Source of the DNA: a virus
Direction: 5' to 3' (one strand)
Virus record (IMG/VR): IMGVR_UViG_3300037264_003220
Location: 1-64,000 of that record
DNA length: 64,000 nucleotides
Shown piece after piece: positions 5,427-58,943 of this stretch. Every line of letters begins with the position of its first letter. Positions within the stretch are counted from its first letter, which is position 1. The position numbers and the translations under genes are program-made. The notes beneath the pieces were generated by a model. That model had not been told where the DNA came from. It worked only from the letters and a program-made list of their open reading frames with translations, and did no database searches.

Positions 5427-6431
5427 TTACTTCGCCAATTCCAAGGCAACGTCCCACGCTTTTTGCTTAAGCACGGCTCCGCTACCCATCAAAAGTGACT
5501 TCGTGCGATTTTCCTCAGAGCCACGGGTCTGCCGATAGAAGTCAGCATATTCAACCACGGCATTCAACCCACCCCAAAGCGTGCCCCGCACGCCAGGAAT
5601 TTCGGTTCCCTTGCCATGCTCGAACAAGCCGGACACTTCCTCCATGATATTGAAGATGTTCGTCTTTGCCCGTCCTTCCTCGTCGCCCTTGGGAGCCAAA
5701 CCAAGGGTCTTGAGATAATCCTTGAATGCGCCTTGGGTCAATTGAACCGTGGCAAGTCTCTTAGAGGCTTCGGCAAAAATCTTTTCTTTCGCCGAGATAA
5801 CGCCAAGAGCCTGACGAACTTCTTCGATTTTAAGACCCATTGAGGCGGTGTGACGCAGAGCAACGGAGATTTCATTGTCATTGCTTGTCAACGCCATGTT
5901 GAGCGTGTTTTGACAAACAACCCGAATGCCCGTCCATTTCACAATGACCGAGCCGGAGCCATCATGACGGTTCATGAGGAGCAGGTATTTTTCGGTGATA
6001 TCATTTTTGACGGTCTCAATAACACCGTTTAGCTTGGCAAGAATCCAAACTATTTCGCCGTCGCCCAAGGCTCCTGCCGTATGATAAATGGCTTCTTTGA
6101 TTCCAACCAGGGCATCGGTAAGGTGAAACGCTTCCTTATTTTGAAGCACGGTGTAACGGTCGCCCACAACGCCAAGAGGCGTGTTGGTGTCTTTGCGGAC
6201 GGTCGCCCACTTATTGGGAACCTTTTTGAGGTTGTCGACGCTCACGTCATGACCCATGCCCGTATAGGCGTAGATGGGTTTTTTTTCGACTTCGTAATTC
6301 AACCCTGCCAATTCAATTGCCTGTGCCGAAGTCATAGCGTTCTCAACGTGCGTCCCTAAGCTATGCCAAGGCTTTTCTCCCGTGTATGCCATGCTGACTT
6401 TCCCATTCGTTACATTCAGATTATGCGCCAT
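5427..6431 (-). CDS. DUF932 / phage-plasmid-like protein (TIGR03299 type)
   Basis: A 334-residue protein opening MAHNLNVTNGKVSMAYTGEK with PWHSLGTHV, the signature start of the DUF932 family found on phages and plasmids. Length matches the family. The role of DUF932 is unresolved; some members are linked to DNA metabolism or recombination. AAGGAGG precedes the ATG with good spacing, and the conserved phage promoter element lies at 6469-6499, making this the first gene of a leftward transcript. A GC-rich hairpin follows its stop. Confidence 0.85.
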   Translation of the reverse strand: MAHNLNVTNGKVSMAYTGEKPWHSLGTHVENAMTSAQAIELAGLNYEVEKKPIYAYTGMGHDVSVDNLKKVPNKWATVRKDTNTPLGVVGDRYTVLQNKEAFHLTDALVGIKEAIYHTAGALGDGEIVWILAKLNGVIETVKNDITEKYLLLMNRHDGSGSVIVKWTGIRVVCQNTLNMALTSNDNEISVALRHTASMGLKIEEVRQALGVISAKEKIFAEASKRLATVQLTQGAFKDYLKTLGLAPKGDEEGRAKTNIFNIMEEVSGLFEHGKGTEIPGVRGTLWGGLNAVVEYADFYRQTRGSEENRTKSLLMGSGAVLKQKAWDVALELAK

Positions 6432-6468: not shown

Positions 6469-6499
6469 AGAATACGATTGACTGTTCCAAACCATAAAT
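6469..6499 (-). promoter_or_regulatory. Conserved phage promoter element (copy B)
   Basis: On the minus strand the sequence reads ATTTATG, 11 nt, then TCAATCGTATTCT, located 38 bp upstream of the DUF932 ATG. The same two boxes at the same spacing occur at 9334-9364 and 58422-58452, each just upstream of a gene in the matching orientation. Spacing and sequence do not fit a standard sigma-70 promoter, so a phage-encoded or phage-modified polymerase specificity is plausible. Confidence 0.7.
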
Positions 6500-6626
6500 C
6501 CAAAACGACGCTATTTATAAGCGTGTTTATTAGAGCAATCAAAAAGGTCAAATACTGCATCTCAATGCTTTGTTTGAGCCTGTTATATCCCGCCATCGAG
6601 TCGATTCTCTTTTCGTAAAATTGAGA

Positions 6627-7260: not shown

Positions 7261-7947
7261 TTATCCCATGCTGTCTGGCAATTGTCCTGGATACTTGAAT
7301 CCGCCTGGAGCGTCTAGTGTCGGCTCCTCACGCACGGGAGCCGTTGCCTTCTTTGCTTGATGCCACATGCGCTTCGCCAGAGACCGCTGCGCCTTGCTAA
7401 TGGCTGTTTTAATCCTTTTGCTTTTTGTCTCTAACTTTTTAATTTTCTTCTTAAGCTGTTCAATTTTATAGGCAGGAGTTTGGCGGATGGCTTTAAGTTT
7501 GCTGGCTCGGTCTTCATGCTTCTTCTGTGATTCAATTTTCTTTTCGACTTCAACATTCATCCTGTCTACCATGGTCTGCGCCTCGGCACGCGCCTTGTCT
7601 ATGAATTGCCTTGCTTCGCAGTAAACTTTAATGAGTGCCTTCTTAAACGTGCCTCTATGCCCGCGCCCTTTGAATTTTTCATAGTTCAAAATATGCGCCA
7701 CTTCATGATAGATAGTCCCAAGGCAACACCAGTGACCCGCTTTGGGCAGGCGAATATAGAGACGGTAAGTGCTCGTGTAGGCTTTGCCTCCAGAATTGTT
7801 TAAATCACATTCAACGCCAATGTCGGGAAGATTGAATTTCTTAGCAATAATGCGAGGTAGGAATATTCGTTCGGGGTATGGAATGCTGATTTCCCTTTCG
7901 GCAGGAAAAGAATCTCGTTCCCAATTATAAATTTCAAGACGTGCCAT
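7261..7947 (-). CDS. SprT-like zinc metalloprotease-domain protein
   Basis: A 228-residue protein. Residues about 75-110 hold YHEVAHILNY, the HExxH zincin site, followed by GRGHRGTFKKAL, where the His supplies the third zinc ligand as in SprT/Spartan-type domains. The C-terminal half (about 115-205) is long, charged and Lys-rich with heptad-like spacing, so probably coiled coil. SprT-like proteins are linked to DNA-protein crosslink cleavage, but phage versions are untested. AGGAGG precedes the ATG, and the TGAGCGAGA leader motif lies just upstream. An HNH gene ends immediately before this leader. Confidence 0.8.
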   Translation of the reverse strand: MARLEIYNWERDSFPAEREISIPYPERIFLPRIIAKKFNLPDIGVECDLNNSGGKAYTSTYRLYIRLPKAGHWCCLGTIYHEVAHILNYEKFKGRGHRGTFKKALIKVYCEARQFIDKARAEAQTMVDRMNVEVEKKIESQKKHEDRASKLKAIRQTPAYKIEQLKKKIKKLETKSKRIKTAISKAQRSLAKRMWHQAKKATAPVREEPTLDAPGGFKYPGQLPDSMG

Positions 7948-8741: not shown

Positions 8742-9314
8742 CTATGCCCTTTCTGAAATACGAGCAGTGCCATCCTTGCGCCACTTCTTGATGCCCAAAA
8801 ACTTCCTCGCGCAGTCCTGACCAATATACATAGCATGAACCTGTCCATTGGCGTCTTTGCCATGCACAGGCACAAATCCACTCGCTTTGATGTGCTTTTG
8901 ACACAGCCCGCAATGGTTATTGACCCCGCCAAATCTTGAATCAAATTTTGTCCCTGCTTCCCATTGAGGGTAGCCAATCCAAACCTTCATAGGCTTCCAA
9001 GTCACGACTTCGCCAGTCCCATACCCTCTGCGGTTCGTGGGGCATGTTGGACATTTACCATATGGTAAAGACATGATTTGTTTTTGTCTATCATTCCAAT
9101 CGTAATAATTTTTAGAGCTAGAAATTTTATTGATAGCCAGAGAGCCATCTTGCTCAAAGTGAGCTTCACCAATCCCATAGCAAGTTGGGCATTGTTTTTT
9201 TACAGGCATGTCGCGCATTTCTTGAACCCATTTGATTTCAACCAAGCCCCAATCGTCCGGCTTAGTTCCCATGAGTTCAAGCGTCTTCAATCCTTTTTCA
9301 CTATGTTTGTCCAT
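8742..9314 (-). CDS. DnaJ-like zinc-ribbon protein, function unknown
   Basis: A 190-residue protein with CPTCYGIG (about residue 42) and CPTCPTNRRGYGTG (about 87), the CxxCxGxG pattern of DnaJ-type zinc ribbons. A second Cys pair, CGLCQKH, follows (about 135), then GQDCARKFLGIKKW. No J domain is present, so it is not a DnaJ co-chaperone. Promoter copy A lies 20 bp upstream of its ATG, making it the first gene of a leftward operon that continues into the histone-fold gene. A role in handling nucleic acid or protein is inferred from the zinc ribbons only. Confidence 0.75.
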   Translation of the reverse strand: MDKHSEKGLKTLELMGTKPDDWGLVEIKWVQEMRDMPVKKQCPTCYGIGEAHFEQDGSLAINKISSSKNYYDWNDRQKQIMSLPYGKCPTCPTNRRGYGTGEVVTWKPMKVWIGYPQWEAGTKFDSRFGGVNNHCGLCQKHIKASGFVPVHGKDANGQVHAMYIGQDCARKFLGIKKWRKDGTARISERA

Positions 9315-9333: not shown

Positions 9334-9364
9334 AGAATACGATTGAGATGTCCAAAGCATAAAT
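9334..9364 (-). promoter_or_regulatory. Conserved phage promoter element (copy A)
   Basis: On the minus strand: ATTTATG, 11 nt, TCAATCGTATTCT, ending 20 bp upstream of the zinc-ribbon gene's ATG. The boxes and spacing are identical to copies B (6469-6499) and C (58422-58452). With B, the 11-nt spacer also shares TTTGGA. It drives the leftward operon away from the divergent helicase gene. Confidence 0.7.
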
Positions 9365-9399
9365 TATTTTTGCATCTATAAATATGAGCATTTTTGATG

Positions 9400-9429
9400 T
9401 TGCAAAAATAGCCACAAATGCGGTAAGAT
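9400..9429 (+). promoter_or_regulatory. Possible sigma-70-like promoter for the helicase operon
   Basis: TTGCAA at 9400-9405 and TAAGAT at 9424-9429 are 18 bp apart, near the host consensus. If used, transcription would begin around 9436, so translation would have to start at the ATG at 9440 or 9446 with almost no leader. This is a weak candidate based on consensus alone; the real start site could lie further upstream. Confidence 0.3.
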
Positions 9430-11122
9430 GGACAACTCCATGAACATGAAAGCTGAAATTTTGCCGCGAGACCAATTCTCTTTTTTTATTAGATTCCAAT
9501 ACGACATGGCTTTGATTGAACTCGTCAGGAGCATTCCTGGATGCTCTTGGGACAAGAAATCAAAATGTTGGATAGGGCGCTATATTTTTTACGATATGGT
9601 CACAGGCGCTCTATTAAAAAAGGGAGTCGAAATTATTGAACGCCCACAAGCCAACCAAGCTCTAAAGGCATTCCACGCCTTTCAGGGCGAACTTGAAAAT
9701 ACGAAAAAACTCGACGGTAACGATTGCTTCATGCTCACCAAAATTAAACTTGACCCGCATCAATGTGTCGGTTCAGCCTTCCTTGCTATCGGTGAAAGAG
9801 TTTTACTTGCTGATGCTGTTGGTCTCCAAAAAACAGCCACTGCCATTAATGCTTGCTTGATTCTCAAGAATCTCCGTGATGTTAAAAAAGTCTTATATGT
9901 CACATTGAACACTTTAAAATTCCAAGTTCAAGAAGAAATTCACAAATTCACAGACGAGCGGGCGCTGGTGATTGACGGCAGTAAAGATGAGAGAGCGGCG
10001 ACATTTGAGCAATGGGAAGCTGGGAATACCATGTTTCTCATAGTCAATTATGAAGCCATCCATTCCTATTTTGAATTATTCGGTCGAGCCAGACCAGAAA
10101 TCATTATCGCTGATGAAGTCAGCCGCGCCAAAAATTGGCAATCCAAAACCTCTAAAGCCTTACGCAAAATTCCGTCTCGATATTTTTGGGCTATGGGCGC
10201 CACGCCACTGGAAAATAATTTCGATGAAGTGTTCAGTATTTTGAAAATCGTCAATCCTGAGCTTCTTGGCAACCGAACAAACTTCATTAATTTTTACGCA
10301 AAAATAGGATTTTTCGGCGAAATCAAGGGATGGCACACGGATAGAATAAAAGATTTTGCCAATCGCATTCAACCTTATATGCTTCAGCGCACCAATGAAG
10401 ACATTGGGCGGACATTGCCAAACACGAATGTTCTGCATCATTGGATGGAGTTATCTCAAGACCAGCGCAGGGTTTATGAAGATTTGAAAGTCAAATCAAA
10501 ACAAACCATTACCGTCGGTGATACGACATATAGCCAAATGATTTCCGTGTTGGTTAAACTTAGAGAGGCGTGCGACTTCGCAGACCTTGGCGACGCAAAC
10601 GCGAGCGGCGCCAGCACCAAGCTCGAAGAATTAATGCGAATCATCAAGGAATCTAAACACGATGATAAAATAATTGTATTCACGCAATGGTTGCAGGCTG
10701 CTAACAGAATAAGCGACCGCCTCACGAGAGATAAGATAAGCCATGTTTTGATTTCCGGCAAAGTTAAAGGAGCGGAACGCCATGACACTCTCAACCATTT
10801 CAAAAAAATGCCTTCCTTAAAAGTCCTTGTTACCACGGATTGCTTGGCTTGGGGTATCAATTTACAGGAATGCAACAAAATGGTTATTTTCGACTTGCTT
10901 TACACGCCGTCTAAAATGACCCAGCGCGTTGGTCGTATACGACGTTATGGACAAAAGCGCGAAATGACTGTTCACACGCTTCTTTGCAAGAACACGGTCG
11001 AAGAAAAAATGCTCGATATCTTGTCTCGCAAACAAGGATATTCAGAAATGCTGTTCGACCCTATGGCAAAAAATGTTAAATTATCAGCCAGTGATTTAAA
11101 GAAAATAATATTGAGCGCATAG
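9428..11122 (+). CDS. SNF2-family DNA helicase/translocase (SMARCAL1-like)
   Basis: A 564-residue superfamily 2 enzyme. The first 75 residues (FIRFQYDMALIELVRSIPGC, SKCWIGRY) resemble the HARP/annealing domain of SMARCAL1-type proteins. ATPase motifs follow: LLADAVGLQKT (motif I, about 138), IIADEVS (motif II, about 227), ATPLEN (III, about 259). The second RecA lobe has VFTQW, TTDCLAWGINLQ and QRVGRIRRYGQK (about 400-530). Motif I has Q for the usual G and motif II is DEVS rather than DEAH. Such enzymes translocate on DNA and can anneal or remodel forks. No clear Shine-Dalgarno precedes the ATG at 9428; ATGs at 9440 and 9446 are alternatives. It heads a rightward operon with a helicase-loader-like gene. 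Confidence 0.85.
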   Translation: MDNSMNMKAEILPRDQFSFFIRFQYDMALIELVRSIPGCSWDKKSKCWIGRYIFYDMVTGALLKKGVEIIERPQANQALKAFHAFQGELENTKKLDGNDCFMLTKIKLDPHQCVGSAFLAIGERVLLADAVGLQKTATAINACLILKNLRDVKKVLYVTLNTLKFQVQEEIHKFTDERALVIDGSKDERAATFEQWEAGNTMFLIVNYEAIHSYFELFGRARPEIIIADEVSRAKNWQSKTSKALRKIPSRYFWAMGATPLENNFDEVFSILKIVNPELLGNRTNFINFYAKIGFFGEIKGWHTDRIKDFANRIQPYMLQRTNEDIGRTLPNTNVLHHWMELSQDQRRVYEDLKVKSKQTITVGDTTYSQMISVLVKLREACDFADLGDANASGASTKLEELMRIIKESKHDDKIIVFTQWLQAANRISDRLTRDKISHVLISGKVKGAERHDTLNHFKKMPSLKVLVTTDCLAWGINLQECNKMVIFDLLYTPSKMTQRVGRIRRYGQKREMTVHTLLCKNTVEEKMLDILSRKQGYSEMLFDPMAKNVKLSASDLKKIILSA

Positions 11123-22114: not shown

Positions 22115-25100
22115 TTACAGCGAATATATTCCACTTGCTATAATTTTACTCGTATTCGCTGGCACAAAAGTGAAAGCGACATTCAATTGATTGGTCAAAT
22201 ACGTCACTGCGTAATCGTCCGTTACGAATCTTAACACGCCGTTTACGAACACCATCTCATGCCCAGATGTTGGAGTCCCTGGAAGATTGAATACAAAAAT
22301 ATTCGTCAACCCGTCAGGAGAATTAACAGGAAGAACATTGGTAAAGTGTTGATGTTGAGCTGCGAATACTTCGCTCGCCAATTGCGTCAAACCAACGGCG
22401 CCTGCTGCAATCTTCGGTTGAGTCACTGCCAAATCACGAATTAAGGCAGTTGTAATGGATTGAAGCTCGATTTCTGTCAATCCGACGGCGCCAGCCGATA
22501 TTTTGGATTGAGTAATGGCAGAATCCGAAATATTGGTCGAAGTCACTGCGTTGACAGCTAATTTTGAATTGGTAACGGCTGAGTCCGTGATATTGACCGT
22601 GGCAACCGCATTGACGGCAAGCTTTGAGTTCGTCACGGCGAGATTGGACAATTCTAACGTGTCTATGGCTCCTGGAGCGATATCGGCGGCAATGACAGTC
22701 CCGTCGGCAATCTTGTCAGACGTGACCGAATTAGGAGCTAATTTGGCATTGGTGACAGCCAAATCACGAATCAGGCTGGAGATAATGGATTGCAGCTCAA
22801 TCTGCGTCAACCCAACAGCTCCATTGGCAATCCCTGCGCCATTGACCAAGTTCCATGCCAGATTCCCATTCCCGTCATTCTGGGGGAACGTGTTCGACAA
22901 GCCTTGGGCGCCAGGAAGCGCGATAGGATAGGAAGTGACGGCTGCTGGCGCATGAACGGAAATGGCATTTGTCCCTGCTCCAGTTTGTTGAAGTTGCAGG
23001 CTGCCTTTCAGATTTATATCTTGAATAGGAAGACTTGGAGAGCCGACGCTGCGCGTGTTCCCAGTATCAGGAGTCAGGTCTTGATTAAACGCCACATTGG
23101 TCAGATTATTGAGAGCGGTTGATGCTTTTGCATCCAATTGAGTCTGGACATTCCCTGTCAAAGTCGATAGGTAGGATGCTTGCGTGGCAGTCAGGTGATA
23201 ATATTCATTACCAGTCCCGCCTTGCAATCCAGCCAAATCATTGTGACGAGTGACGAGCGGAGTGTGAATGTGGGAATAATGAGTCGTTCCGTCATGAACA
23301 AGATTAATGGTGATGTTGCCAACATTCGTCGTCCGACCATAAAACCGAACCGATAACTCATCTGTCGCGCCAAACCCAGTATAGGCAGGCTGAGCCGTGA
23401 GAACATTTTCAAGAGTCACAGTTGTATCGTTGATTTCTCCAGATTCAACTTGAAATAGATTTCGATGCACGGCATACGCGACGCTGGATTCATTGACATA
23501 CCCGCTTGGCGTTGCGATGGTAACAATCGAAGATGACGTGAATCCTGTAACTTGAAAGGTTTGAGTTGGAGTTTCAATATAGCCGGATAGAGTCATATCC
23601 GCATTGGCATCACCAGCGAGGAATGGAGTGCCGCCAGTAATGGTCGCCAAGCGACTTGTCCCAGACCCTGTGATAGTTACGGTGCCTGCTCCTAAAAAGC
23701 GACGCAAGACTTGCGAGACAATGGTCGAAGTTCCAGATACGACATCGACATACCGATACAAATCAAATTCCCAAATACCGCCATCAAGCTGAGTTCGTCC
23801 TAACGGAGCAGATAAATATCCGCTAATAATGTCCGTGGAATTATTGACGACGACACTATCAGAATGCTCAAGAGCTGTGTCTGGAGCAAATGACAATGTG
23901 AAATTACCATCTGACGACGGCAGGTCATTTAAGAAATAAATAACGCCCGCGCCCGCTGACGTATTGACAGGAGTTCCATTTACCCACTCTATTCCATTAT
24001 ATTGGATGACATCATTCACCGCAGGAGACGCAATAATGACATCGCTCAATTGAGACAGATTCAAAGACATGACTTCAATGCGGATGGCGTTAGAGATGCC
24101 ATCAGAGGTTACGGAGATAGATGGGCTGCCAGCCAATTGAACATTGTCGGTTAAAGTCAGCTGACCATAGGCGGCGATGGTTTTAACAACTTGTCCAGCC
24201 GCTATTTTGTCGCTTGTGACGGCGTTGACCGCTAATTTAGGGTTCGTCACTGCGGAATTGGAAAGTTCCAAAGTATCAACAGCGCTCGGCGCCAGGTCTA
24301 CGGCGATAACAGTTCCATCGGCAATTTTATCGGACGTAACAGAGTTCGGAGCCAGCTTCACATTTGTGACAGCGAAATCACGAATGAGGTTGGTGATAAT
24401 GGCTTGAAGTTCGATTTGCGTAAGCCCGACCGCCCCATCAGAAATTTTCGATTGAATAATTGAGCTGTCACTTATGTTGGTTGACGTTACCGCGTTGACG
24501 GCAAGTTTAGGATTCGTGACGGCAGAGTCAGTAATATTCGCAGTCGCCACGGCATTGGCAGCTAATTTGGGATTGGTGACGGCAGAATTGGACAACTCCA
24601 AAGTGTCGACCGCGCTGGGAGCCAAATCAACAGCAATCACGGTTCCATCAGCAATTTTGTCGGAGGTCACAGAGTTGGGAGCCAACTTCGCATTGGTAAC
24701 GGCGAAATCACGAATCAAATTTGTCACTATGGCTTCAAGTTCTATTTGCGTTACTCCAACAGCCTGAGATGCGATTTTTGGTTGAGTCACGGCTTGGTCG
24801 CGCAATAAACCTGTCAAAATGGCTTGGCTTTCAATTTGCGTCAAACCTACCGCAGCGTTAGCAATCTTCCCTTGCGTCACAGACGTGTCTTGAAGTTTTC
24901 CAGTTGAAACAGACACATCCTGAAGTTGACCTGTCGAAATAGATAGCGCGGCGATTTTCGTATTGGTGACAGAATTATCAGCCAAGAGCGCGTTCGTTAT
25001 AGCTTGATTTTCAATCTGGCTCGTACCAACGGCGCCAGATGAAATATGAAGTTGCGTAATGGCATTGATTTGAATGGCAATCCCAGGAACCGAACGCGGG

Positions 25101-34687: not shown

Positions 34688-36991
34688 TTAATGAGCCAAT
34701 GTCTGAGTCGTATCAAAATTAGTATTTGTCGGCATACCTGTTATTTTTGTCGCTTTAGTGCTTGCATTTTTATTATCTGCGGCAACTTGACCAGCGATAT
34801 AGGCTTTTTCTATAGCTAAAGCATCTGCGAAATCAATATCGACGCCATATTCCCAAATATACCCACCATAATAAAATGGACTTAAACTTGGAGATAACGC
34901 TTCTTTTGTGAACAATTTTTGTGGGTTATAAATATGAGCAATTTCATCAGGACTATACCCATTTACTTTCATTGTCGACAAAATAGAATTATAAGCAAGG
35001 TTTAATTGCCCAGCAGATAAAACAGTAAAAATTTCATTTTTTAAAATATCTCTATCGAGTTTGCGTTGCATCACATTTCTATTTTCATCGTTTGAGGCGA
35101 CAACAAAAACGCCAGCGCCCGTCACGACACTTCCAGCAATAAGACCAGCCAAATCAAGGACGGGCATTCGTCGATAAGTTAAATTCATTCTGCATGTATA
35201 ACGAGAACCAGGAGCAATTGAATGCTCGATAGAGTCAACATAAAAAAGCATATTGCTTGATTTCAAATAAATGTAATTCCCTACACGATAACGCGAATCT
35301 CCAATTACTTCCAAAGAACCACCAGAGAAAGCTTTGCGATTAATTCTATTTAGCACCGAACTCGCCCAGACATTCAAGCTTGCATTAGTGATTAAGCCGA
35401 TAACTGGCTGAATGTTCAGCATTTTTTCGCCATATTTTTTAATAAGACGATTATCTTTGATGTATCCAAAAATACCTAAAGCATCCAAATTGGTGCCCAG
35501 TCGAATTTTCCAATTTCCTGTCACGACAGCTACATTAGCGATGTCTGTATTATCTTCATAAGTGTTTTCTTGATAAATATCAGTATCGGCTATGGCATTA
35601 ATATTTGCAGGATTAACTAATTGTTGAAGACTAACATTCACAGGACGGAATCGAACCACTCCTTCTTCAGTAGCAAAAAATTCAAAATTAACTATATTGG
35701 CAAACTCTTGAAATAATTTTTGAACCTCTTTCCATTCGGAAATCCACAAATCAAAACCATTTCTAAAAGCTACATCATAGGCTGGCTGAGCCGTACCTTC
35801 AATGACCATAATTGGTTTTTTAACAAAATTAGAAGCTTGAGCAGTTACAAGTGCTTTAGTGTTTTTAAAAATTTGTGTGCCTTGAACTTTCATCCCAGTA
35901 GAGCCAGATGTGTCAATATATTGTGTTATGTTGTTACTTCTGTCGTCTTCGATTTTTTTACGCAAATTAGCTATTTCAGTGTCAATAGCATCACCTCGCT
36001 CAATGCCGACATTGCCTGAATTAATCGCTCCAGCTAAATTTTGAGTTTGAGTTGAGAAAAAATTCTTTTGTTTATAAAGAACGTTGTATTGGTTGATTGA
36101 GGACGAAATAGATGGGATTGAATTAATTGTTGAAAAAGAAAAAGCTCCTACATTGCTAACGACCTTCTCAACAGCTTCGGCGCCGCCGCCATCACCTTGA
36201 ACCCATGGAAAAACAAAAGCGCTTAACGGTATATATTGAGCCTCTGGGTCTCGGTCAATAAGTGCCTTGCGAATTGCCACGCGAGAATATCGCAATCTTT
36301 TAGTCACATCTTCACAATCAAGATTGATTGTGTTTTGATTTGGCGCCTTGTTGCGCGTCACTTTATTAATGAAGCCAGTAAAACATACACGCAAAACATT
36401 ATTTTTATCTGGCAATCGAATTACAATAATATCGTCTGCTTCAAAAATTGTTTTTCCGACGAGAAGTGTATTTTTTTGAAAACAATATTTGTTTAAATCA
36501 TTTTTAATTGTCACGGAAGCAGAGCCAGCAGAACTCACTGACAATCTAGTAGACACATTCAAAACATCCTCAATGCCATCTATAGCTGATGAACGAACCC
36601 TCACCGCCCATGCAGGTCTGCTTAAATCAATAATTCCGAGAGCGACAATATCAATATAAGACGCATTGATGTAAAGCTGAACTGGAGCCGCATCTAAAGC
36701 TGGAGTAAAACCTGGGCCAATCGCCGAAGTACGAATTGGGAATGTTCCTGGTGATGGTCGAGTATCTATAATTGGCTGAAGAATGACATCTTTTCTTTTA
36801 AAAATAAAATCAAGCTTGCCCTTAATAGTCGATATAAATTCAGAGTAATAGCTTTGAAAATTCTTCAATTCCGTATCATAATCTTGCGGCAAAGCTCGAA
36901 GCTGCTTAATAACGAAAACGTCAAATTCTCTATCAAGAGCGATTTGATTTTCAACCAACGCATCTTTGCCGCCTGCTGGATAAATATTCAC
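34688..36991 (-). CDS. Baseplate hub protein (gp27/gpD-like)
   Basis: A 767-residue protein. The middle part shows SSAGSASVTIKND, VIRLPDKNNVLRVCFTGFIN and TINLDCEDVTKRLRYSR, which fit a hub barrel domain. Later FFATEEGVVRFRPVN and YVDSIEHSIAPGSRYTCRMN match the second hub barrel. Hub proteins form the tube-like base that carries the spike. At 767 residues it is longer than P2 gpD, with added N- and C-terminal regions. The spike gene follows by one base. Confidence 0.75.
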   Translation of the reverse strand: MNIYPAGGKDALVENQIALDREFDVFVIKQLRALPQDYDTELKNFQSYYSEFISTIKGKLDFIFKRKDVILQPIIDTRPSPGTFPIRTSAIGPGFTPALDAAPVQLYINASYIDIVALGIIDLSRPAWAVRVRSSAIDGIEDVLNVSTRLSVSSAGSASVTIKNDLNKYCFQKNTLLVGKTIFEADDIIVIRLPDKNNVLRVCFTGFINKVTRNKAPNQNTINLDCEDVTKRLRYSRVAIRKALIDRDPEAQYIPLSAFVFPWVQGDGGGAEAVEKVVSNVGAFSFSTINSIPSISSSINQYNVLYKQKNFFSTQTQNLAGAINSGNVGIERGDAIDTEIANLRKKIEDDRSNNITQYIDTSGSTGMKVQGTQIFKNTKALVTAQASNFVKKPIMVIEGTAQPAYDVAFRNGFDLWISEWKEVQKLFQEFANIVNFEFFATEEGVVRFRPVNVSLQQLVNPANINAIADTDIYQENTYEDNTDIANVAVVTGNWKIRLGTNLDALGIFGYIKDNRLIKKYGEKMLNIQPVIGLITNASLNVWASSVLNRINRKAFSGGSLEVIGDSRYRVGNYIYLKSSNMLFYVDSIEHSIAPGSRYTCRMNLTYRRMPVLDLAGLIAGSVVTGAGVFVVASNDENRNVMQRKLDRDILKNEIFTVLSAGQLNLAYNSILSTMKVNGYSPDEIAHIYNPQKLFTKEALSPSLSPFYYGGYIWEYGVDIDFADALAIEKAYIAGQVAADNKNASTKATKITGMPTNTNFDTTQTLAH

Positions 36992-50472: not shown

Positions 50473-52932
50473 TTAGGCTACTCCTGCTGGTTCAAGTTTT
50501 TGCTGTTGAATCTTTTGAAGCATGGCGTCAGTAGCCTTCAAGTTATCTTCGATTTTTTTAACATGAGACGAATGGCTATTGGAACTAATAGCTTCTTTGG
50601 CTTTCACAAAAGCGTCTTTCGCTTCCACGTATTTACCTTTGTTGAAAAGAATGACTCCGATATCGTTCCAGGCTCCCCACAGTTTCGGGTCAAGCTCCAC
50701 CGTCTTTTGATACAACACAAAAGCTTCGTCATATTTTTTGTTGTGATAAAGATGAATCGCGCGAATAAAATAAGGACGTGGGTCTTTGGGAGTCAGTTCA
50801 CACTGGCGCTCCGCCAAAGCGTAATACCAGTCATGCTTGGCTGTCAAAGAATGCTTCTCTTTCAAATATCCGAAGTGGTAAAGAGGAACCTGCGTTCGCA
50901 CTATGTTTACCTTTCTTGATTTCCCCATCTCAGCCAAGCTATCGTCAATGTCCTCATGAACGAGCCGCGTGTAAAATATGCGCGGGTCATTCACGAACAT
51001 GCGTAGCGTCTCTGACAAAACCCAATTGGCATCCCACCCATTCTCGAATGGATTGGCTTGGTAATTCCGAATCGGAACCAAATAAGCGTCGACGTTCTCT
51101 ACTTGCGCCAATTTCCATACATTTAAAAGATGGTCTTTAGGCACGATTTCGTCTGCATCAAGCCTCAAAATCCATGGTTTTGTACAGGCTCTTATGGCAG
51201 CGTTCCGTGGCTCTGAAAAGCCCTTAGACGGGATATCCCATGGAAACTCGACAACGCGGGCGCCCAGAGACTTGGCAATTTCTATGGTCTTATCCGTGCT
51301 GCCTGTGTCGCACACCACAACCTCATCTACAATAGGCAGGGCGCTTTGAATTGCCTGCGCTATGTTCTTTTCCTCATTCTTAGCCATGATAGATAGACTG
51401 ATTTGGTTATAGCGAGGCAGTTTAGACCGCCAATCCTTAAATTTCGTTATTTCGTCAGCCAAACGCTTTTCTTCTTCTTCGGCTCGTTTAGCTTTCACCT
51501 CTGGGGACTCAACCAAGTTCTCCGGCTTCTCCAAATGGTCAGGAGTGAAATATGTGTCAGCCCAGAGCTTATAGCCTGCGCACATCGCACGCACACAGAA
51601 ATCCCTGTCTTCGCCGCGAACGTTGCTGGGGAGGTTTTGAACGCGGCTGTATCCAACGCCACGGCTGATAGGCTCTCTGCCAATCAAGGTGCAGGCGCCG
51701 AGACCTCCAACAGGATACGTCCCAGGGCGTTTTAACATGGATAGGAACTCAGCATTGATTTCATACCCGCCACGAATCCACACATTGGGGAGTGGCTGCG
51801 CATCTTTATGTCCCCAAGTTGCCCAAAATACTTCGGACACGATAGGGCGCTCCAGACCAACCAAATGCTTAAGCAAGCGCGGGTGTTTCATCACGATATC
51901 CGAATCCACCATGAACACGGCTTCGGATTGGAATCTATCTAAAGAGCCAAGCACGCGATTACGCATGAAAGCCATATTCGCCAGCTTCTGGTCTTCCCAG
52001 GAATGCTCTTTATCGCTGGCGTTCCCAAAATTAATGGTCTCTATTTCAACAAGCTTGTAAACCTTGTCTTTGCTCTCTGCCCACTTCTTCAATATCTCAA
52101 ACGTGCCATCCTGAGAGTCATTGACGATAAAATAGAAGCTCAATTTTTCCTTTGGGTAATCCAGCAAGTCCATCCCAGCCAAAAATTTATCAATGACCCA
52201 TTCACGGTTGCGAACCAATGAAGCCACGACAATGTTGGGCCATTCAATTTCATTTCTGAATGGCTTTAATTGAGCTGGCTTAAATATGCTATGGGCGTGC
52301 TCAAGATTGATGCCAGTCGCTCTCTGCAAGTAAAACTCATATTTACGTTCTTTATCTTTATCGTCAGCCCATCCCCAATGATTCAAAAACAAATCAGAGC
52401 GAGCCATGCCGCGCATTGATTGAGACACGTAAGACGGCACGCACCCGCAATGAATGTTGCCAGCGTACCCAAATGGTTTATCCTGATAACGGAACAAACG
52501 CGTAATCAGAGGACTCCAATAGCCATCTGTGCGATATTCGGTTTCATTCCACATGTCCAATAAGCGAACCGAGTACCAGTCATATTCCGTGGTCTTGATA
52601 AGCTCAGGCAATTCTTTAATAAAGCTGTCACTGAAGGTTTCATCGGCATCCTGACTGATTATCCAATCACCGTCTTTGGCGAAGCTTTTAGTCATCTCCC
52701 ATTGCGTATTGCGTAGTTTGGATTCGTCTATTCCAAACATGGATTGCTCATATTGAGACGTGAAAAATTTGACCTTGGGATACGACCGACACAATGATTC
52801 AGTCTTCCCGCCGTCATCGCTCTTGTCATCTAAAACAAGAATCAGGTCGGCAAACGCTGACGCGTTGTCAAGCATCCGCTTCAAATATCTCTCGCTTTCA
52901 TTTCTTACCAACAGTTGAACTATGACACTCAT
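50473..52932 (-). CDS. Multi-domain GT2 glycosyltransferase with TPR tail
   Basis: An 819-residue protein. Three GT-A folds follow each other: residues 1-210 (LLVRNESERYLKRML, then DWIISQDADETF), about 250-470 (VFMVDSDIVMKHPRLL), and about 500-700 (LSIMAKNEEKNIAQAIQSAL, ILRLDADEIVP). Each retains an acidic D-x-D-like sugar-nucleotide site. The C-terminal about 100 residues are TPR repeats (YFIRAIHLYHNKKYDEAFVL). It likely transfers several sugars to a protein or glycan. It is in the structural operon beside a second GT2 gene and a methyltransferase. Confidence 0.8.
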   Translation of the reverse strand: MSVIVQLLVRNESERYLKRMLDNASAFADLILVLDDKSDDGGKTESLCRSYPKVKFFTSQYEQSMFGIDESKLRNTQWEMTKSFAKDGDWIISQDADETFSDSFIKELPELIKTTEYDWYSVRLLDMWNETEYRTDGYWSPLITRLFRYQDKPFGYAGNIHCGCVPSYVSQSMRGMARSDLFLNHWGWADDKDKERKYEFYLQRATGINLEHAHSIFKPAQLKPFRNEIEWPNIVVASLVRNREWVIDKFLAGMDLLDYPKEKLSFYFIVNDSQDGTFEILKKWAESKDKVYKLVEIETINFGNASDKEHSWEDQKLANMAFMRNRVLGSLDRFQSEAVFMVDSDIVMKHPRLLKHLVGLERPIVSEVFWATWGHKDAQPLPNVWIRGGYEINAEFLSMLKRPGTYPVGGLGACTLIGREPISRGVGYSRVQNLPSNVRGEDRDFCVRAMCAGYKLWADTYFTPDHLEKPENLVESPEVKAKRAEEEEKRLADEITKFKDWRSKLPRYNQISLSIMAKNEEKNIAQAIQSALPIVDEVVVCDTGSTDKTIEIAKSLGARVVEFPWDIPSKGFSEPRNAAIRACTKPWILRLDADEIVPKDHLLNVWKLAQVENVDAYLVPIRNYQANPFENGWDANWVLSETLRMFVNDPRIFYTRLVHEDIDDSLAEMGKSRKVNIVRTQVPLYHFGYLKEKHSLTAKHDWYYALAERQCELTPKDPRPYFIRAIHLYHNKKYDEAFVLYQKTVELDPKLWGAWNDIGVILFNKGKYVEAKDAFVKAKEAISSNSHSSHVKKIEDNLKATDAMLQKIQQQKLEPAGVA

Positions 52933-58376: not shown

Positions 58377-58421
58377 TTTTATCGTCCCTCAAAAACAATC
58401 TTATAAATCAATACGTTTTTC

Positions 58422-58452
58422 ATTTATGATTCACGCAACTCAATCGTATTCT
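58422..58452 (+). promoter_or_regulatory. Conserved phage promoter element (copy C)
   Basis: Plus-strand ATTTATG, 11 nt, TCAATCGTATTCT, 20 bp before the ATG of the membrane-protein gene. It matches copies A and B in both boxes and spacing, though here it fires against the surrounding late transcript. It lies in the 97-bp gap between divergent genes. Confidence 0.75.
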
Positions 58453-58472: not shown

Positions 58473-58943
58473 ATGAAACCGAACAAAGTCTGGTTCCCGC
58501 AATTGGGAAAATATGTCGAAGTCAGCTACAAGCCTTTCAAATGTCAAGCATGGGAAAGCCTGCAAAACACTCATAAAAGCAGTTACTGGTCTAACTTCAA
58601 CGTCTTCGAGTTTCTGTTTCGACTTGTCGTTTTCTTGTTCGTATTCCTGCCACTCAGTTACTTCTGTCTCGCCGTTTATTTCGGCATGTTTGGTGCAAAA
58701 TGGGGCTTCATTATCATTGGCGTCGCCTACTGTCTTATCATTGCGTGCATCTTGAGCAACACCAAGCCAACGCAATTCATTCCCACTGTTGGGATGATTA
58801 TTCAAGGTACTGCTTTGTTGCCATTCCTATTCATTGGCGGATTCATCCTGGGGCAAGCCCCTTTCGGAAGTTCCACCATTGCGGGCATCGGCGCAAGCCT
58901 TGTGTCAGCATCCCCTCCAGGGAGTAAAAGCCATGACAATTAA
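58473..58943 (+). CDS. Multi-pass membrane protein on its own promoter
   Basis: A 156-residue protein with a soluble N-terminus (about 1-42), then hydrophobic helices near residues 45-70, 72-100 and 110-135. GGAGGG lies 7 nt before the ATG, and promoter copy C lies directly upstream. It is the only plus-strand gene with its neighbour in this 50-kb leftward block. Membrane proteins placed like this often alter the host envelope (for example superinfection exclusion), but no family was recognised. Confidence 0.75.
   Translation: MKPNKVWFPQLGKYVEVSYKPFKCQAWESLQNTHKSSYWSNFNVFEFLFRLVVFLFVFLPLSYFCLAVYFGMFGAKWGFIIIGVAYCLIIACILSNTKPTQFIPTVGMIIQGTALLPFLFIGGFILGQAPFGSSTIAGIGASLVSASPPGSKSHDN

What the first reader, a model, noticed from the sequence alone, without database searches (positions are those of the whole stretch)
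58422..58452. A three-copy phage promoter element with fixed 11-nt spacing
Elements at 6469-6499 (-), 9334-9364 (-) and 58422-58452 (+) each read ATTTATG, exactly 11 nt, TCAATCGTATTCT. Each lies 20-38 bp upstream of a start codon in the matching orientation. The spacers are mostly different, so the two boxes are conserved, not one long repeat. The layout does not fit sigma-70. It may mark a phage-specific regulon linking left-arm genes to the membrane-gene island.
Basis: seen in the sequence. Interest (0 to 1): 0.75.

Follow-up and report, generated by a model that had tools for sequence, protein, structure and literature searches.

The report
Three matched promoters in a phage
A large bacterial virus carries three near-identical switch-on signals (promoters) in front of three genes, and two related viruses carry three signals at the same places but in their own spelling, so the signals are real and probably turn on the virus's early genes.

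Summary
ATTTATG-N11-TCAATCGTATTCT occurs exactly three times, perfectly, in the window and in the whole 90,280-bp phage record. The next best place has 5 mismatches. All three copies lie just upstream of genes, in matching orientation.

The new evidence is comparative. Two syntenic relatives of 144 and 147 kb carry three elements each, at the same three places: before a DUF932 gene, divergent from an SNF2-type helicase, and before a lone plus-strand membrane gene inside the structural block. Each genome has its own sequence version. All nine sites align without gaps on an invariant CGTA. A matrix built from the other two genomes ranks the Q sites 1, 2 and 4 and the R1 sites 1-3; R2 sites fare worse (14, 17, 145).

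I read them as bipartite DNA-level promoters, with a -35-like box and a CGTA/TANNNT -10 region 16-18 nt downstream, most likely early promoters read by host RNA polymerase. No sigma factor or RNA polymerase was found in these phages, though the T7-type test had no working control. Which factor reads them is unproven; a cryptic phage factor is the main rival.

The parts
6469..6499 (-). Element A: ATTTATG (6493-6499), N11, TCAATCGTATTCT (6469-6481); C of CGTA at 6476
   Evidence: Exact match; syntenic elements R1 36907(-) and R2 24503(-)
9334..9364 (-). Element B: ATTTATG-N11-TCAATCGTATTCT in the divergent gap between the 190-aa gene and the SNF2-type helicase; C of CGTA at 9341
   Evidence: Exact match; syntenic elements R1 38919(-) and R2 26966(-)
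58422..58452 (+). Element C: ATTTATG-N11-TCAATCGTATTCT before the lone plus-strand gene; C of CGTA at 58445
   Evidence: Exact match; syntenic elements R1 94214(+) and R2 81989(+)
6513..6519 (-). TATAAAT stretch 43 nt upstream of CGTA of element A
   Evidence: also in Q_C and R1_A at the same distance (within 1 nt)
58391..58408 (+). Upstream part of element C: AAAAA tract (58391-58395) and TATAAAT (58402-58408)
   Evidence: A at -52 and -51 in all nine sites
9391..9395 (-). AAAAA tract upstream of element B
5427..6431 (-). Gene behind element A: DUF932 domain protein, 334 aa (phrog_1221)
   Evidence: PF06067 E=6e-53; the R2 gene in this slot is also DUF932, E=7e-8
8742..9314 (-). Gene behind element B: 190-aa protein with CxxC motifs, no family
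58473..58943 (+). Gene behind element C: 156-aa membrane protein, with orthologues in R1 (37%) and R2 (26%)
9428..11122 (+). SNF2-type helicase divergent from element B (synteny anchor)
   Evidence: 62% identical in R1 and R2

Best explanation
The three elements are DNA-level, bipartite promoters, most likely the early promoters of this myovirus lineage. A sigma-type factor on bacterial RNA polymerase contacts the -35-like box (ATTTATG here) and the -10 region around CGTATTCT, 16-18 nt apart. Transcription then starts about 7 nt after TATTCT, on the conserved purines. Elements B and A fire leftward into the left-arm block. Element C drives one plus-strand membrane gene inside the structural block, so that this gene is expressed together with the left-arm genes. 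Shown: the sites, their exact number, their synteny and their within-genome sameness. Inferred: that they are promoters, that they act early, and which sigma reads them.
For: There are exactly three sites in each of three phages at the same three slots, always pointing at the gene. All nine align ungapped with CGTA invariant, A at -52 and -51 invariant, and G 15 nt after the C in 8 of 9. Matrices from two genomes find the third genome's sites: Q ranks 1, 2, 4; R1 ranks 1, 2, 3; R2 ranks 14, 17, 145 among 180,000-290,000 positions. Matrices from all nine put the three true sites far above everything else in each genome, though those matrices include the sites. The distance from CGTA to the start codon varies from about 27 to 87 nt while box spacing hardly does, as expected of a promoter and not of a ribosome-binding element. 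No sigma (PF04542, PF08281, PF04545), multi-subunit RNA polymerase (PF00562, PF00623) or virion RNA polymerase domain passes its cut-off in any of the four records, and the PHROGs families shown name none.
Against: The -35 boxes differ between the phages and match TTGACA poorly in Q. R2 has TATATG, without the final T of a sigma-70 -10. Identity of 20/20 bases in Q, including TCAATCG outside the canonical hexamers, is more than a housekeeping sigma needs. No transcript data exist. The host is unknown. The T7-type polymerase search (PF00940) had no control that rang.
Confidence: 0.52

Rival explanations
1. The elements are promoters for a phage-encoded, so far unrecognisable specificity factor (a diverged sigma, or a MotA-like activator that replaces -35 recognition). 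The factor and its three sites co-diverge in each phage.
For: Within-genome identity averages 65% against 37% between genomes at the same slot; of all 280 ways to group the nine sites into threes, grouping by genome scores highest. CGTA at 16 nt from the -35 box resembles group IV (ECF) sigma layout. Guzina and Djordjevic (PMC4331800) note that promoters of phage-encoded sigma factors are typically well conserved but low in copy number.
Against: No sigma or RNA polymerase homologue was found. The one weak region-4 hit (R1 35121-35246) lies in a protein that reads as an HNH-type homing endonuclease with a helix-turn-helix end. A dedicated factor for only three sites would be unusual.
Confidence: 0.28
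2. The elements are operators: a phage regulator binds over the promoter core and represses or times the three genes.
For: Long within-genome conserved footprint; TCAATCG lies outside the canonical hexamers.
Against: I saw no dyad shared by the nine sites (by eye), and no regulator with a clear DNA-binding domain shared by the three phages turned up in the scans made.
Confidence: 0.08
3. The boxes lie in the 5' leader RNA of transcripts that start upstream at the TATAAAT stretch, and act on translation or mRNA decay.
For: A TATAAAT, TAAAAAT or TAAAAT stretch lies 41-44 nt upstream in six of nine sites; small hairpins can be drawn between the end of the box and the purine tract.
Against: The upstream stretch is not in all nine, unlike CGTA. 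Fold energies over -60 to +20 are close to those of shuffles in every site (z -1.4 to 0.7), and over -25 to +25 only R1_C stands out (z -2.7). The distance to the start codon varies widely.
Confidence: 0.08
4. The three copies are recent duplications or gene-conversion products without a common function.
For: R1_A and R1_B are 92% identical over 39 nt, spacer included.
Against: In Q the spacers are 27-55% identical while the boxes are 100%; the slots are kept across phages whose sequences have diverged.
Confidence: 0.04

Closest known systems
Strong early promoters of lytic phages read by host RNA polymerase (such as T4 early promoters; PMC3014915)
   Same: Stereotyped sequence within the phage, upstream A-rich stretch, -35/-10 geometry, reader presumably the host enzyme (T4 details from own knowledge)
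   Different: Only three copies; -35 and -10 are not the sigma-70 consensus; the sequence version differs between relatives
Phage-encoded sigma promoters of phiEco32 and 7-11 (PMC4331800)
   Same: Few, well conserved copies; related but shifted consensus in related phages
   Different: Those phages encode the sigma factor; none is found here. Their motif is short (TAATGTATA / TGATGT), whereas this one is bipartite
N4 early promoters read by the virion RNA polymerase (PMC4496689, abstract start; promoter details from own knowledge)
   Same: A small set of early promoters
   Different: N4 promoters need a hairpin and a giant virion polymerase; no shared hairpin and no such polymerase domain above cut-off here
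T4 middle promoters (MotA box plus -10; own knowledge)
   Same: A non-canonical box replaces the -35 while a -10-like region stays
   Different: No MotA-like protein identified; the box lies at about -34, not -30

Membership tests
Bacterial-type (sigma-dependent) phage promoter | Two conserved boxes with fixed spacing near 16-18 nt | tested here: met
   fixed in Q and R2; R1_C aligns without gaps but its best -35 match sits 1 nt off that of R1_A and R1_B
Bacterial-type (sigma-dependent) phage promoter | Upstream of genes, oriented toward them, outside coding regions | tested here: met
   (in one search site B of Q is flagged as inside a 70-aa minus-strand ORF that is probably spurious)
Bacterial-type (sigma-dependent) phage promoter | Transcript starts 5-10 nt after the -10 | not testable with these tools
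   Needs 5'-end mapping
Housekeeping sigma-70 promoter | TTGACA / TATAAT-like hexamers | tested here: inconclusive
   TATTCT (Q), TATCCT/TAATCT and TTCGCA/TTCACA (R1) are plausible; ATTTATG (Q) and TATATG (R2) are poor
Phage-encoded sigma regulon (phiEco32 type) | A sigma gene in the phage | tested here: not met
   none above cut-off; the Q record is probably incomplete, R1 and R2 are about 145 kb; a very diverged sigma is not excluded
ECF (group IV) sigma promoter | AAC-containing -35 about 16 nt before CGTA/CGTC | tested here: inconclusive
   CGTA and spacing fit; no AAC-type -35 in the aligned boxes
N4-type virion polymerase promoter | Hairpin promoter and virion RNA polymerase | tested here: not met
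   three giant proteins (two of Q, one of R2) gave no polymerase match and a DxDxD-like site is not kept
T7-type polymerase promoter | Single-subunit RNA polymerase gene | tested here: inconclusive
   PF00940 gave none, but its control rang nowhere; the PHROGs families shown for R2 genes outside the structural block name none

The most novel reading that the evidence does not exclude
This phage lineage encodes a specificity factor without recognisable similarity to sigma factors or polymerases. It serves only three promoters, and its recognition code has shifted in each phage together with all three sites.
Probability: 0.25. Interest if true: 0.7.

Novelty: new variant of a known kind. Interest (0 to 1): 0.45.

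Why it matters
The slots of three promoters are kept across a phage lineage while their sequence changes together within each genome. That is a clean natural experiment on how a promoter code and its reader change together. It marks which genes this uncultured myovirus group probably expresses first, and it gives a way to find such low-copy promoters by comparing relatives.

Tried and rejected
A viral-contig scan for the exact element found nothing. The only genome-contig hit (Nitrospinota contig L113) lies inside a 635-aa gene, reads TTTTATG and shares no protein with the Q record, so I take it as chance. Eighty DUF932 loci from other phages carry no such element (best 5 mismatches, matrix scores up to 11.5 against 27-38 for the nine sites, which built the matrix), so the element is not tied to DUF932. 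Giant proteins as RNA polymerase: no support. Sigma region-4 hit in R1: an HNH-type protein by its sequence. A second R2 motif, ATGAGCGAGAG, looks unrelated. More relatives were sought with portal, capsid, helicase and the 475-aa gene, but only R1, R2 and the 19-kb R3 turned up, besides a 23% helicase match. The membrane gene as query found nothing in viral contigs. Capsid relatives in genome contigs: none.

Full report
Check of the observation. ATTTATG-N11-TCAATCGTATTCT is present without mismatch at 6469-6499 (-), 9334-9364 (-) and 58422-58452 (+); dinucleotide shuffles of the window give 0.02 matches at up to 3 mismatches. The record in which the window lies (here Q) is a 90,280-bp virus contig and holds no fourth copy; the next best places have 5 mismatches. 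Gaps to the ATG are 37, 19 and 20 nt.

What the record is. Portal, major head protein, head protease, tail fibres, a helicase (SNF2-type) and a DnaC-like loader mark a tailed phage. Portal and head protein are distantly related to Bacillus phage G and to large mycobacteriophages; that it is a myovirus is inferred from these relatives.

Relatives. Portal similarity brought in two long contigs, here R1 (144,307 bp) and R2 (146,629 bp), and a 19-kb fragment R3. R1 and R2 match most of the genes of Q in the same order. Neither holds the Q element at up to 3 mismatches. The orthologue of the plus-strand membrane gene showed a counterpart upstream. Searching R2 with its own version gave three copies, and only three, at up to 1 mismatch. 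R1 likewise has three. The nine sites lie in the same slots: A before a DUF932 gene (R2 checked, its R1 counterpart judged by sequence; in Q a different DUF932 subfamily, no tblastn match), B divergent from the helicase, C before the lone plus-strand gene.

Alignment. Anchored on CGTA and without gaps, the nine sites share CGTA, A at -52 and -51, T after CGTA in 8 of 9 and G at +15 in 8 of 9. The flanks of CGTA and the -35-like box are genome-specific: ATTTATG / TCAAT (Q), GTTCGCAC / CAAAA (R1 A and B), TTGCACR / CC-ended (R2). Leaving CGTA out, mean identity within a genome is 65%, by slot 37%; no other grouping of the nine into triples does as well. Matrices built without the genome searched rank the true sites 1, 2, 4 (Q), 1, 2, 3 (R1) and 14, 17, 145 (R2). 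R2 is thus the most diverged, and the support there is weaker. With its own version, R2 sites (1, 4 and 4 mismatches) stand clear of any other place in R2 (10 or more) and of 60 shuffles (7 or more).

Mechanism. Fixed box spacing, a free middle spacer, orientation toward genes and varying leader length fit a promoter read by a two-domain sigma-type factor. They do not fit an RNA leader element (no common stable fold) or an N4-type hairpin promoter. Sigma-70 hexamers are partly matched. Strong sigma-70 consensus sites are rare in the gaps of all three genomes, so what drives the other genes is not explained. No sigma factor or polymerase gene above cut-off was found in the four records. The T7-type search is inconclusive because its control rang nowhere, and the structural genes of R2 were not scanned as a set. 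The family tables were cut at 25 families. Host polymerase is therefore the default reader, and early use is an inference from that.

Limits. Three genomes, no expression data, host unknown, and gene calls are mechanical ORF choices. My confidence that these are promoters of any kind is about 0.8; that the host enzyme alone reads them early, about 0.5.

Noticed in passing
L098:4461-5765 (-), relative R2: A 434-aa protein with TROVE and Ro60-type vWA domains (RNA-binding Ro60-like protein) in a phage.
   Followed up: partly
L104:17368-17607 (-), relative R2: One of 39 small proteins scanned matches the Acb2/Tad1 hairpin domain (E=1.9e-13); by its sequence most likely this 79-aa protein, a possible anti-CBASS protein.
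   Followed up: no
window 7963 and 8437 (-); R2 1053, 14304, 16626, 26631 (-): A second repeated motif, ATGAGCGAGAG, exact at these places; both window copies lie 16-18 nt before gene starts.
   Followed up: partly
window 7261-7947 (-): 228-aa protein kept in all three phages, with a YHExAH motif as in SprT-like zinc proteases and a charged, coiled-coil-like second half.
   Followed up: partly
L004:15455-16180 (-): 241-aa protein with DUF559/Vsr-like endonuclease domain, without a match in R1 or R2.
   Followed up: no
record 79472-84808 and 85192-88461 (-): Giant proteins (1778 and 1089 aa; 2320 and 1277 aa in R2) with few conserved blocks and no known function.
   Followed up: partly
window 50473-52932 (-): 819-aa protein with a glycosyltransferase-like domain inside the structural block, 75-77% identical in R1 and R2.
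   Followed up: no
window 5427-6431 (-) against R2 23256-24416: The slot-A gene is a DUF932 protein in both Q and R2 but of different subfamilies, as if replaced while the promoter slot stayed.
   Followed up: partly
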